Origin: Actinotalea caeni
GTDB lineage: Bacteria; Actinomycetota; Actinomycetes; Actinomycetales; Beutenbergiaceae
Assembly (NCBI RefSeq): GCF_009733795.1
Contig: NZ_WNXX01000001.1
Coordinates: 248,001-312,000 of the forward strand
Direction: 5' to 3'
DNA: 64,000 nt
Position numbers and translations under genes: made by a program. Under the pieces are notes generated by a model. The model was not told where the DNA came from. It worked only from the letters and a program-made list of their open reading frames with translations, and ran no database searches. Below, one piece after another: positions 16,837 to 52,325 of the stretch. Each line of letters opens with the position of its first letter. The stretch's first letter is position 1.

Positions 16837-18083
16837 GCGTCGACCTCGGCCCCGGCCGTCTGCATGGCGATCTCGAGCTCGGCCTCGATCGCGGCGAGCA
16901 TGCGCTCACCGACGACGTCGACGCCGATCCGCCCGATCATCTCGGCGAAGAAGCCGCGGAGCACCAGCCGGCGCGCGGCCTCCTCAGGGATGCCGCGAGC
17001 GCGCAGGTAGAACAGCTGCTCGTCGTCGAAGCGACCCGTCGCCGAGGCGTGCCCGGCGCCCTCGATCTCACCGGTCTCGATCTCGAGGTTCGGCACCGAG
17101 TCCGCGCGGGCGCCGTCGGTCAGCACCAGGTTGCGGTTGAGCTCGTAGGTGTCGATGCCCTCGGCCTCGGGCCGGATGAGGACGTTGCCGATCCACACGC
17201 TGTGCGCGCCGTCGCCCTGCAGCGCGCCCTTGTAGAGCACGTCGCTGCGGGTCTTGGGCTCGTTGTGGTCGACGAACAGGCGGTGCTCGATGTGCTGCCC
17301 GGCGTCGGCGAAGTAGAGGCCGAGCAGCTCGGCCGACCCGCCGGGGCCGTCGTAGACCGCGGTGGTGTCGTGGCGCACCAGGTCGCCGCCGAAGGACACC
17401 GAGACGTGCTTGAGCTCGGCGTCGCGACCGACGACGGCGTGCGCGTTGCTGTGGTGCACCGCGTCGGGCTGCCAGTCCTGGTACGAGACGAACGTCAGCG
17501 CCGCACCGTCGCCCAGCACGATCTCGACGTTCTCGGCGTAGGTGGCGCTGCCCTCGAAGAACACGACGACGCTCGCGCGGGCGTTCGCGCCGACGGTCAC
17601 CAGCAGGTGACCCGCGACCGCCTCGCTGCCGCCGTCACCGGTGAGGGTGACGACCAGCGGCTCGGCGACCTCGGTGCCCGCGGGCACGTCGATCGTCATG
17701 ACCTTCTCGGTCGCGGCCCAGGCGCGGGCGCTCACGCGGTCGATCGGCACGTAGCCCGACAGCCCGCGACGCGACTCGGCGACCGGCACGATCTGGACCG
17801 TCACGCCGTCGACGCCCCTGACGTCGGCGGTCACGCCCTCGCCGCGCAGCGGCGCGTCCTGCAGCAGGCCGCGCAGGCGGCGCAGCGGGGTGAACCGCCA
17901 CTCCTCCTCGCGCCCGGTCGGCACCTCGAACGCCTCGGGGTCCGTCGAGGCGAACCGGTCGGCGTAGCTGGTGCCCGGCGACGTGCGCACGCCGTGGCTG
18001 TGGGCGGCGTCGGCGGACGCGCGCGAGTGATCGGTGGACAGTCCGGTGGTCTCGACCGGGCTGTCCGTGGTGTCGGTGGTCAT
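16833..18083 (-). CDS. sufD: Fe-S cluster assembly protein SufD
   Basis: A 416-residue SufD scaffold subunit. The core shows the family's long beta-helix, with motifs such as GREEEWRFTPLRRL near the N-terminus, VLYKGALQGDGAHSVWIGNV, and the C-terminal SATGRFDDEQLFYLRARGI. The N-terminal 30-40 residues are a Thr/Asp/Ser-rich linker. The ATG at 18083 shares one base with the sufB stop (TGATG). It forms SufBC2D with its neighbours. Confidence 0.95.
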   Translation of the reverse strand: MTTDTTDSPVETTGLSTDHSRASADAAHSHGVRTSPGTSYADRFASTDPEAFEVPTGREEEWRFTPLRRLRGLLQDAPLRGEGVTADVRGVDGVTVQIVPVAESRRGLSGYVPIDRVSARAWAATEKVMTIDVPAGTEVAEPLVVTLTGDGGSEAVAGHLLVTVGANARASVVVFFEGSATYAENVEIVLGDGAALTFVSYQDWQPDAVHHSNAHAVVGRDAELKHVSVSFGGDLVRHDTTAVYDGPGGSAELLGLYFADAGQHIEHRLFVDHNEPKTRSDVLYKGALQGDGAHSVWIGNVLIRPEAEGIDTYELNRNLVLTDGARADSVPNLEIETGEIEGAGHASATGRFDDEQLFYLRARGIPEEAARRLVLRGFFAEMIGRIGVDVVGERMLAAIEAELEIAMQTAGAEVDA

Positions 18084-19540
18084 CAGCCGACGGCCCCTTC
18101 CATCTGCAGCTCGATGAGGCGGTTGAGCTCGAGGGCGTACTCCATGGGCAGCTCGCGCGCGATGGGCTCGACGAACCCGCGCACGATCATGGCCATCGCC
18201 TCGGTCTCCTCCATGCCTCGGGACATGAGGTAGAACAGCTGGTCCTCGCTCACCTTCGAGACGGTCGCCTCGTGACCCATCTCGACGTCGTCCTCGCGGA
18301 CGTCGACGTAGGGGTAGGTGTCGGACCGGGAGATCGTGTCCACGAGCAGCGCGTCGCAGAGCACGTTCGACTTGCTCGCCTCGGCGCCCTCGAGCACCTG
18401 CACGAGGCCGCGGTAGGAGGCGCGACCACCGCCGCGGGCCACCGACTTCGACACGATCGAGCTCGACGTGCGCGGCGCCATGTGCACCATCTTCGAGCCG
18501 GTGTCCTGGTGCTGCCCCTCGCCGGCGAAGGCGATCGAGAGCGTCTCGCCACGGGCGTGCTCGCCCATGAGGTAGACCGCCGGGTACTTCATCGTCACCT
18601 TGGAGCCGATGTTGCCGTCGATCCACTCCATGGTGCCGCCCTCGGCGACGGTGGAGCGCTTGGTCACCAGGTTGTAGACGTTGTTCGACCAGTTCTGGAT
18701 GGTCGTGTAGCGCACGCGGGCGTTCTTCTTCACGACGATCTCGACGACGGCCGAGTGCAGCGAGTCGCTCGAGTAGATCGGCGCCGTGCAGCCCTCGACG
18801 TAGTGCACGTAGGAGCCCTCGTCGGCGATGATCAGCGTCCGCTCGAACTGGCCCATGTTCTCGGTGTTGATCCGGAAGTAGGCCTGGAGCGGGATCTCGA
18901 CGTGCACGCCCGGCGGCACGTAGACGAACGAGCCGCCCGACCACACCGCGGTGTTGAGCGCAGCGAACTTATTGTCGCCCGCCGGGATCACCGAGCCGAA
19001 GTACTCCTCGAAGATCTCCGGGTGCTCGCGCAGGCCGGTGTCGGTGTCCATGAAGATGACACCCTGCCGCTCGAGCTCTTCGTTGATCTGGTGGTACACC
19101 ACCTCGGACTCGTACTGGGCCGCGACGCCGGCCACGAGGCGCTGCTTCTCCGCCTCCGGGATGCCGAGCCTGTCGTAGGTGTTCTTGATGTCCTCCGGAA
19201 GCTCCTCCCAGCTGGTGGCCTGCTTCTCGGTGGTGCGGACGAAGTACTTGATCTGATCGAAGTCGATGCCGGAGAGGTCGGCGCCCCAGGTCGGCATCGG
19301 CTTGCGCTCGAACATCCGCAGACCCTTGAGGCGCTGGTTGAGCATCCACTCCGACTCGTTCTTGAGCGCGGAGATGTTGCGCACGACCTGCTCGGACAGA
19401 CCGCGCTCGGCGCTGGCGCCGTAGACGTCGGGGTCGTGCCAGCCGAACGTGTAGTTGCCGATCGAGGCGATCGTCTCGTCCTGCGTCAGCGGCCGGTCGA
19501 CCGGCTCCGCCGCGGTGGCGGCCTGTGGCTCGACAGTCAT
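18083..19540 (-). CDS. sufB: Fe-S cluster assembly protein SufB
   Basis: A 485-residue SufB scaffold. Characteristic motifs include [18 protein letters not shown], the [13 protein letters not shown] segment with a candidate Cys, [17 protein letters not shown], and the end [18 protein letters not shown]. It follows the sufR stop without overlap (start ATG 19540, sufR stop at 19541). It is the first structural gene of the SUF operon. No intein is present, unlike some mycobacterial SufB genes. Confidence 0.97.
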
Positions 19541-20284
19541 TCAGCTGTCCTTCCGGGTCGGGATCTTCAGAGGGATGTGGGTCGTGCAGACGTGCCCGCC
19601 GGTGGCCAGGGTGGCCAGCCGTTGGACGTGCACGCCGAGCAGGTCGGAGAAGGCGCGGGTCTCCGCCTCGCACAGCTCGTTGTAGGCCTCGGCGACGTCG
19701 AGCACCGGGCAGTGGCCCTGGCACACCTGCACCGCGATGCCACCCGGCATCGGACGCGCGGTGGCAGCGTAGCCGTCCTCGGCGAGCAGTCGCGCCAGCG
19801 TCTGGGCACGCGCGGCGAAGTCGTCCCCGGCGGCCTCGATCGCGGGGGCGTAGCGGGCGCGCATCTCCTCCGAGCGCGCCTGCGCGAAGGCGGTGATGCC
19901 CTCGGGCCCCAGCGCCTGCTTGATCTGCGCGAGCGCCGCCAGCGCGGCCTGCGCGTAGGCAGTGCCGAGGTGGGAGTGCGCGGAGGCGGCCGCGACGTAC
20001 TTGCGCGCGGGGCGGCCGCGGCCACGCTTGGTGACCGGGACGTCGTCGCGCGCCTCGACCTGCCCCTCGGTCTCCAGCGTGATGAGGTGGCGACGGACGG
20101 CGGCGGAGGTCAGCGTGAGGCGGCGCGCCAGCTCGGCGGCGCTGATCGGGCCGAGCTCGACGATCAGCCGCAGCACCCGGTCGCGCGTGGTCGCCTCGTC
20201 GTGGCTCTCGACGCTCTCGGCCGGTGCACGGCCGGTGGCGAGCGCGTCCTCGGTGGCGGTCGGGTTCGGGGCAGCGGTTGGCAT
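19541..20284 (-). CDS. sufR: SufR-type iron-sulfur sensing repressor
   Basis: A helix-turn-helix protein of 247 residues: winged-helix region around ISAAELARRLTLTSAAVRRH and a C-terminal Fe-S domain with Cys at about 188 and 192 (VCQGHCPV), 205 (NELCEAE) and 233 (GHVCTTH). These four Cys fit the [4Fe-4S]-binding pattern of SufR regulators, which repress suf operons when clusters are sufficient. Start uncertain: a GGAGG lies 2 nt from GTG 20296, 8 nt from TTG 20290 and 14 nt from ATG 20284. It stands upstream of sufB and downstream of an inverted-repeat operator. Confidence 0.92.
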   Translation of the reverse strand: MPTAAPNPTATEDALATGRAPAESVESHDEATTRDRVLRLIVELGPISAAELARRLTLTSAAVRRHLITLETEGQVEARDDVPVTKRGRGRPARKYVAAASAHSHLGTAYAQAALAALAQIKQALGPEGITAFAQARSEEMRARYAPAIEAAGDDFAARAQTLARLLAEDGYAATARPMPGGIAVQVCQGHCPVLDVAEAYNELCEAETRAFSDLLGVHVQRLATLATGGHVCTTHIPLKIPTRKDS

Positions 20285-20347
20285 CGTCAAGCGCACTCCC
20301 TCCTCACGGCTCAGGGGTGGCGACCGACCGGCCGCGACGAGCCCCTG

Positions 20348-20376
20348 ATTTAGACAACATTCTCCGTTGTCTAAAT
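20348..20376. promoter_or_regulatory. Inverted-repeat operator, probable SufR box
   Basis: ATTTAGACAAC (20348-20358) and GTTGTCTAAAT (20366-20376) are perfect inverted 11-mers with a 7-nt spacer. The inner CAAC...GTTG resembles the half-sites known for SufR in other bacteria. The repeat is AT-rich in a GC-rich region and includes a -35/-10-like pair on the minus strand (TTAGAC, 16 nt, TAAATC). Location 64 nt before sufR supports autoregulation of the SUF operon. Confidence 0.8.
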
Positions 20377-20455
20377 GGTTCCCGCAAGCAAGGCGACCCT
20401 AAGTGAGACGCGTCACGCGGCCGCTCGCGCGGCGGCTGCAGGCCGTCGCGCGGGC

Positions 20456-20461
20456 TACCGT
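20456..20461 (+). promoter_or_regulatory. ctaA leaderless-type -10 box
   Basis: TACCGT lies 6 nt before the GTG at 20468. It would place ctaA under its own promoter, separate from the SufR box about 80 nt upstream. Confidence 0.45.
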
Positions 20462-20467
20462 AGGGGG

Positions 20468-21415
20468 GTGTCGGACGCCCTGCTCCGGCGCCTCACCGGC
20501 GCCGCCGTGATCGCCAACCTGGTCGGCCAGGTCCTCATCGTCGTCACAGGCGGTGCCGTGCGGCTGACCGGCTCGGGGCTGGGTTGCTCGACGTGGCCGC
20601 AGTGCGAGCCCGGCAGCTTCACGCCGGTGTTCCACGAGGCGATGGGGATGCACGTCTTCGTCGAGTTCGGCAACCGGATGATCGGCGTGCTGCTGGGCCT
20701 GGTGGGGATCGCGCTGGCGGTGCTCACGACGCTCGCCGTGCGTCGGCTGGGTCGCTCCGAGGACGTGAGCTGGCTCGCCTACGGCGTGCTGGTCGGTGTC
20801 GTGCTGCAGGGCGTCGTCGGCGGCGTCTCGGTGCGGCTGGACCTGCACCCCGGCATCGTCGGCTCGCACTTCCTGCTCTCGGGCGCGCTGCTGGTGCTGT
20901 CCACGCTGCTCGCCGTGCGGTGGTTCGAGGGCGACGGCGCCCGTCGGCTGCTCGGCGGTCGCACGCTGCGCTCGGTGGCCGCGGTCGTCGCCCTGCTGGC
21001 CGTCCTGGTCGTCGTGCTCGGCGTCGTCGTCACCGGCGCGGGGCCGCACTCGGGCGACGACGAGGTGGGCTACCGGTTCGCCGTCGACCCCTACCTGGTG
21101 GCGCGCATGCACGCCGCGGCGGTGTGGCTGCTCCTCGTGACGCAGGTGGCGCTGCTCGTGGCCGCCGCCCGCACCCGCCCGGTGCTGCCGGCGCTGCGCC
21201 GCTGGAGCCTGGTGCTGCTCGCGGTCACGCTCGCCCAGGGCCTGATCGGGTACGTGCAGTTCTTCACCGGGCTGCCGGAGCTGCTCGTCGGCGCCCACAT
21301 GCTCGGCGCGGCCCTCCTCATCGTCGCCACCACCCGCACGGTGCTCACGCTGCGCACGCGCGAGCCGGAGGTCGTCGAGCAGCCGCGCCGGCCGGCGGCC
21401 GCGACGGCGGACTGA
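20468..21415 (+). CDS. ctaA: Heme A synthase, CtaA/COX15 family
   Basis: A 315-residue integral membrane protein with about eight helices. Conserved His are in HEAMGMHVFVEFGNR, LHPGIVGSHFLL, HAAAVWLLLV and GAHMLGAALL, matching heme A synthases that convert heme O to heme A for cytochrome aa3 oxidase. The GTG at 20468 (VSDALLRRLTGAAV) lies 6 nt after TACCGT; the open frame extends further upstream but has no start signal. It diverges from sufR. Confidence 0.92.
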   Translation: MSDALLRRLTGAAVIANLVGQVLIVVTGGAVRLTGSGLGCSTWPQCEPGSFTPVFHEAMGMHVFVEFGNRMIGVLLGLVGIALAVLTTLAVRRLGRSEDVSWLAYGVLVGVVLQGVVGGVSVRLDLHPGIVGSHFLLSGALLVLSTLLAVRWFEGDGARRLLGGRTLRSVAAVVALLAVLVVVLGVVVTGAGPHSGDDEVGYRFAVDPYLVARMHAAAVWLLLVTQVALLVAAARTRPVLPALRRWSLVLLAVTLAQGLIGYVQFFTGLPELLVGAHMLGAALLIVATTRTVLTLRTREPEVVEQPRRPAAATAD

Positions 21416-35673: not shown

Positions 35674-35706
35674 ACAAGGGCCGCCCCGGAACGGGGCGGC
35701 CCTTGT
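35674..35706 (-). terminator. rRNA operon terminator
   Basis: A perfect 15-bp stem (35674-35688 with 35692-35706) with a 3-nt loop GAA, just after the 5S gene. The minus-strand transcript continues into a T-rich stretch. It ends the rRNA operon. Confidence 0.9.
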
Positions 35707-52298: not shown

Positions 52299-52325
52299 TT
52301 AGCACTCGATGCACTCGAGTGCTAA
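52299..52325 (+). promoter_or_regulatory. CIRCE element (HrcA operator)
   Basis: TTAGCACTC, nine nt and GAGTGCTAA match the CIRCE consensus perfectly. It overlaps a promoter for the hsp20 gene: TTAGCA (52299-52304), 18 nt, TAATCT (52323-52328). HrcA would repress the gene until heat stress. Confidence 0.9.

What the first reader, a model, noticed from the sequence alone, without database searches (positions are those of the whole stretch)
20348..20376. 11-bp perfect inverted repeat with 7-nt centre as SufR operator
The symmetric site (20348-20358 / 20366-20376) overlaps promoter-like elements and lies before sufR. SufR half-sites of the CAAC/GTTG type are known with a 6-nt centre; here it is 7. 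ctaA on the other side may also be affected, linking heme A and Fe-S supply.
Basis: partly seen in the sequence, partly recalled or inferred. Interest (0 to 1): 0.5.

Follow-up and report, generated by a model that had tools for sequence, protein, structure and literature searches.

The report
SufR operator with seven-base centre
A perfect mirror-image DNA site sits on the promoter of the operon that builds iron-sulfur clusters, where it is almost certainly the docking site of the operon's own repressor SufR; the only unusual point is one extra base between its two halves, shared by the three species of this genus that were examined.

Summary
The palindrome is real: 11-bp perfect arms and a 7-nt centre at 20348-20376, the only such site in the genome, and above chance. 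It lies in the sufR-ctaA intergenic region of a Pseudactinotalea genome. A footprint over 24 of 24 family genomes shows it is the local version of the actinobacterial SufR operator, whose published form is CAAC-N6-GTTG. It covers the presumed -10 of the sufR promoter: in 24 of 24 promoters the six bases before the right half-site read NANNNT, and in 23 of 24 a TTG lies 17 nt upstream. The likely mechanism is textbook: [4Fe-4S]-SufR blocks the promoter; loss of the cluster derepresses suf. The 7-nt centre is genus-wide (3 of 3 genomes); of the other 21 family promoters 13 have a clear 6-nt site and 8 are unclear, none favouring 7. The left CAAC moved 1 bp upstream, while right half-site, -10 and -35 stayed fixed. 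No matching indel was seen in SufR's DNA-binding part. The ctaA link is not supported: ctaA has its own, probably leaderless, promoter about 100 bp away, and lay beside sufR in 6 of 128 loci. A new variant of a known operator, of modest interest; binding was not tested.

The parts
20348..20376 (.). SufR operator: half-sites ATTTAGACAAC / GTTGTCTAAAT with 7-nt centre (core CAAC-N7-GTTG)
   Evidence: unique in genome; family footprint
20359..20364 (-). putative -10 hexamer of the sufR promoter, GAGAAT, inside the operator centre
   Evidence: NANNNT in 24 of 24 family promoters; not mapped by experiment
20382..20387 (-). putative -35 hexamer TTGCGG, 17 nt upstream of the -10
   Evidence: TTG at this place in 23 of 24 family promoters
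20384..20402 (-). conserved block TTAGGGTCGCCTTGCTTGC, iron-box-like
   Evidence: family consensus; 12 of 19 matches to the DtxR consensus; a lead only
20403..20416 (.). CRP-like GTGA-N6-TCAC site between the two promoters
   Evidence: GTG-N8-CAC in 3 of 3 genomes of the genus; the name CRP is recalled
20456..20461 (+). putative -10 of ctaA, TACCGT, 6 nt before GTG 20468
   Evidence: same box and spacing, GTG in frame, in 3 of 3 genomes of the genus
20468..21415 (+). ctaA (heme A synthase family), divergent, probably leaderless
   Evidence: COX15-CtaA 4.5e-25
19541..20296 (-). sufR; start uncertain among GTG 20296, TTG 20290, ATG 20284
18083..19540 (-). sufB, next gene of the operon
   Evidence: SUFBD_core 3.8e-88

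Best explanation
The palindrome is the operator of SufR at the promoter of its own operon (sufR-sufB-...). A SufR dimer with its [4Fe-4S] cluster binds the two half-sites AWTTNNNCAAC, which flank and cover the -10 hexamer, and keeps RNA polymerase off; when clusters are short or damaged, apo-SufR lets go and suf is expressed. In this genus the upstream CAAC lies 1 bp further out, giving a 7-nt centre, while the downstream half-site and the promoter stayed in place. Shown here: the site, its uniqueness, its conservation, its register with the presumed promoter, and the cysteines. Inferred from studied SufR proteins: binding, repression and cluster dependence.
For: Footprint at the same place in 24 of 24 family promoters; 33 nt from TTGCTTG to the right half-site in all 21 that have that exact heptamer, N6 and N7 alike. 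Among 208 loci scored, 66 of the 79 with a clear site are N6 (which corrects for one wrong offset). Published SufR sites: S. avermitilis CAAC-N6-GTTG overlapping the -10, and C. glutamicum GAAC-N6-GTTG (PMC11995493, passages); cyanobacterial CAAC-N6-GTTG (PMC8593673, passages). Cysteine spacing +4, +13, +28 as given for C. glutamicum SufR. The 7-nt site occurs once in the genome, next to sufR.
Against: No binding or expression data for this organism. The SufR score against TIGR02702 is below its curated cut-off (68.6 against 178.8 bits). 129 of 208 surveyed sufR upstream regions gave no clear site by my threshold, many of them Micrococcaceae. S. avermitilis is reported to place its -10 three bases nearer the left half-site (AACAAT); the equivalent hexamer here, AACGGA, is a poorer -10, so the promoter register is my inference. 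A +1 spacing could weaken binding.
Confidence: 0.92

Rival explanations
1. One SufR site controls both sufR and ctaA, coupling heme A to Fe-S supply.
For: ctaA is divergent and adjacent in 3 of 3 genomes of the genus.
Against: ctaA has its own TACCGT box and probably leaderless start, about 106 bp from the operator centre. A CtaA match beside sufR was found in 6 of 128 loci. The operator is in register with the sufR promoter.
Confidence: 0.06
2. The palindrome is the site of another regulator that controls suf, and SufR acts elsewhere.
For: Other regulators act on suf operons in relatives (OxyR in C. glutamicum, PMC11995493 passages; DtxR predicted in C. diphtheriae, PMC524172 passages).
Against: The core is the published SufR half-site pair and sits at the published SufR position on the -10; no second CAAC/GTTG-type site was found upstream of sufR or elsewhere in the genome, apart from one 3-mismatch N6 match.
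Confidence: 0.04
3. The 7-nt centre makes a weakened operator, so that suf is partly constitutive in this genus.
For: Published SufR sites have a 6-nt centre; no indel in the DNA-binding part of SufR compensates.
Against: The 7-nt form and the CAAC/GTTG cores are kept in 3 of 3 species, and the window's own arms are perfect over 11 bp, which argues for selection on binding.
Confidence: 0.2

Closest known systems
SufR operator of Streptomyces avermitilis (sufRBDCSU promoter)
   Same: Autoregulated suf operon; CAAC/GTTG half-sites overlapping the -10 (PMC11995493 passages)
   Different: 6-nt centre there, 7 here; reported -10 lies 3 nt nearer the left half-site
SufR site proposed in Corynebacterium glutamicum
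   Same: GAAC-N6-GTTG at the main sufR promoter; same cysteine spacing
   Different: 6-nt centre; several start sites there
Cyanobacterial SufR operator (Synechocystis)
   Same: CAAC-N6-GTTG palindrome bound by holo-SufR (PMC8593673 passages)
   Different: 6-nt centre; sufR there is divergent from sufBCDS (PMC6034842 passages)

Membership tests
SufR operator | CAAC and GTTG half-sites as an inverted repeat | tested here: met
SufR operator | 6-nt centre | tested here: not met
   7 nt here and in the other two species of the genus; I therefore call it a spacing variant
SufR operator | lies on the promoter of sufR / the suf operon | tested here: met
   position and conserved -35/-10-like register; promoter not mapped
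SufR operator | bound by holo-SufR | not testable with these tools
   needs gel shift or footprint
actinobacterial SufR protein | winged helix plus four cysteines spaced +4, +13, +28 | tested here: met
   spacing as in C. glutamicum
cyanobacterial SufR equivalog (TIGR02702) | score above curated cut-off | tested here: not met
   68.6 against 178.8 bits; a relative, not that equivalog

The most novel reading that the evidence does not exclude
SufR can work with a dyad one base wider. In Pseudactinotalea the upstream CAAC slid 1 bp while the downstream half-site, locked to the -10 and -35, could not move. Operator geometry would thus be set by the promoter, and a repressor without any indel in its DNA-binding part would accept an odd-length centre, perhaps helped in the window's species by its perfect 11-bp symmetry (7 and 8 of 11 in the other two species).
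Probability: 0.55. Interest if true: 0.35.

Novelty: new variant of a known kind. Interest (0 to 1): 0.22.

Why it matters
It puts a SufR operator with a non-canonical, lineage-conserved spacing on the map and shows which half of the site stays in register with the promoter. Motif searches that demand CAAC-N6-GTTG would miss it. It offers a natural spacing variant for asking how rigid the SufR dimer is on DNA. It does not support a new link between heme A and Fe-S supply.

Tried and rejected
Effect on ctaA: examined by promoter conservation and gene order, not supported. Further SufR targets: degenerate patterns with up to 3 mismatches in the own genome gave only this site for N7, and one 3-mismatch match for N6, taken as chance; the reversed control pattern also had one match. 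N7 elsewhere: TTNNNCAAC-N7-GTTGNNNAA hit 11 of 248 order genomes; two are Pseudactinotalea (at sufR); for the other 9 a SufR search of one fetched 3-kb locus each found nothing. Three of those 9 (G497, G485, G491) have a second hit whose locus was not fetched; these lie away from the sufR places. Extended arms TAGACAAC-N4..10-GTTGTCTA: 1 of 396 phylum genomes, the own one (the other two species of the genus were not in that draw). A matching indel in SufR: none seen in the DNA-binding part. Rfam: no match in 19400-20700. Sigma-70 scan: no promoter.

Weak points of the survey. The site score was made from the family's own half-sites. 'Clear' means score at least 18 of 23 and 2 above the next spacing. 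In some searches one locus, L034, had a wrong offset (short contig); one search corrects it, which moves the clear count from 65 N6 of 78 to 66 N6 of 79. Seven loci were 'clear' for N5 (L039, L041, L049, L146, L147, L148, L217) and one for N8 (L055), which I did not follow up. Family: 13 of the 21 non-genus promoters are clear N6; L006, L015, L016, L018 and L024 fit 6 best but below threshold; L019, L022 and L023 show no preference for 6. In one search only 6 and 7 were allowed. In the other two species of the genus the outer AATT arm can be read in either register; only the CAAC shift is unambiguous there.

Full report
Observation. The inverted repeat is as described: ATTTAGACAAC, 7 nt, GTTGTCTAAAT at 20348-20376. 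It is 31% G+C in a 68% G+C intergenic region, and 2 of 2000 dinucleotide shuffles of that region hold any perfect repeat with arms of at least 11 and a centre of 3-12. With a 7-nt centre and up to 3 mismatches it is the only match in the 4.0-Mb genome.

Setting. On the minus strand lie sufR (19541-20296) and sufB (18083-19540); further suf-like genes follow down to about 13973 (translations; SUFBD_core for sufB and the next SufBD protein; the other names are recalled from their sequences). On the plus strand lies ctaA, COX15-CtaA family, most likely starting at GTG 20468.

SufR. The protein has a winged-helix N-terminus (several Pfam HTH families) and cysteines C188, C192, C205 and C233, invariant in 14 of 14 aligned relatives (numbering from ATG 20284). 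The spacing +4, +13, +28 is that given for C. glutamicum SufR residues 171, 175, 188 and 216 (PMC11995493, passages). Its TIGR02702 score is below the curated cut-off.

Footprint. All 24 family genomes searched have SufR. In their 24 promoter regions, read in the sufR direction, the order is T.AGG.T.GCCTTGCTTG, then the left half-site, six or seven bases, then the right half-site. The distance from TTGCTTG to the right half-site is 33 nt in all 21 that have that exact heptamer; the other 3 have one changed base in it. The hexamer just before the right half-site is NANNNT in 24 of 24, and TTG begins 17 nt before it in 23 of 24. I take these as -10 and -35. The operator centre is then the -10 itself in the 6-nt form, and one base plus the -10 in the 7-nt form.

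Spacing. Three of 3 Pseudactinotalea genomes have 7 nt. Of the other 21 family promoters, 13 are clear 6-nt sites, 5 fit 6 best but below threshold, and 3 have decayed left arms with no preference for 6. In the 21 the left AWTT-like arm starts in one fixed column; in the window it starts one column further upstream together with its CAAC; in the other two species the CAAC is shifted while the outer AATT is readable either way. Among 208 loci (repeats included) 79 gave a clear site: 66 N6, 7 N5, 5 N7 (three Pseudactinotalea species, two counted twice) and 1 N8; 129 were unclear. Exact CAAC-Nx-GTTG cores: 28 N6, 6 N7, 1 N8, 1 N5; the sixth N7 (Sinomonas, L191) lies at another distance and lacks the outer arms. 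In 248 genomes of the order an N7 pattern hit 11, of which the two Pseudactinotalea lie at sufR; no SufR match was found in the one locus fetched for each of the other 9.

Mechanism. In studied actinobacteria cluster-bearing SufR represses suf and the apo form derepresses it (PMC11995493; PMC10848736; passages). In M. tuberculosis a SufR binding site was mapped by ChIP-seq 20 bp upstream of a sufR start codon (PMC6034842, passages). The same is most likely here; none of it was tested on this organism.

ctaA. The three genomes of the genus share TACCGT 6 nt before a GTG that is in frame with CtaA. TACCGT is a good actinobacterial -10 (TANNNT, recalled), which implies a leaderless ctaA transcript from its own promoter, about 106 bp from the operator centre. 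A CtaA match lies divergently beside sufR in 6 of 128 loci (upstream sequence was 900-1500 nt, less for L034, L061 and L110). A direct effect of SufR on ctaA is therefore unlikely, though not excluded.

Other control. The block TTAGGGTCGCCTTGCTTGC matches the published DtxR consensus (PMC1382209, passages) at 12 of 19 positions, a level reached by 4 of 374 tiles of the window. DtxR control of the suf operon was predicted in C. diphtheriae (PMC524172, passages), and iron-dependent-repressor-family genes exist in the genome (3 matches over the cut-off). This is a lead only.

Literature limits. I saw no report of a 7-nt SufR operator in searches (listings, plus passages of the papers named here). 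The primary papers on the S. avermitilis and M. tuberculosis sites were not held, so no claim of priority is made.

Verdict. A SufR operator of the usual kind with an unusual, genus-wide spacing.

Noticed in passing
20384-20402: Conserved block on the sufR side overlapping the presumed -35, 12 of 19 matches to the DtxR iron box; possible double control of suf by iron and by Fe-S clusters.
   Followed up: partly
20403-20416: CRP-like GTGA-N6-TCAC palindrome about 58 bp upstream of both the presumed ctaA start and the presumed sufR start; GTG-N8-CAC in 3 of 3 genomes of the genus.
   Followed up: partly
52299-52325: Perfect CIRCE element (TTAGCACTC-N9-GAGTGCTAA), the usual HrcA heat-shock operator (the name is recalled).
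   Followed up: no
35674-35706: Strong G+C-rich hairpin, terminator-like, shortly before what looks like a 5S rRNA end (recalled, not searched).
   Followed up: no
L162-L221, e.g. L165: Many Arthrobacter-type sufR promoters share ATTACGACATG-ATTGT-GTTGTGTATTC instead of a clear CAAC-N6-GTTG, possibly another operator geometry.
   Followed up: no
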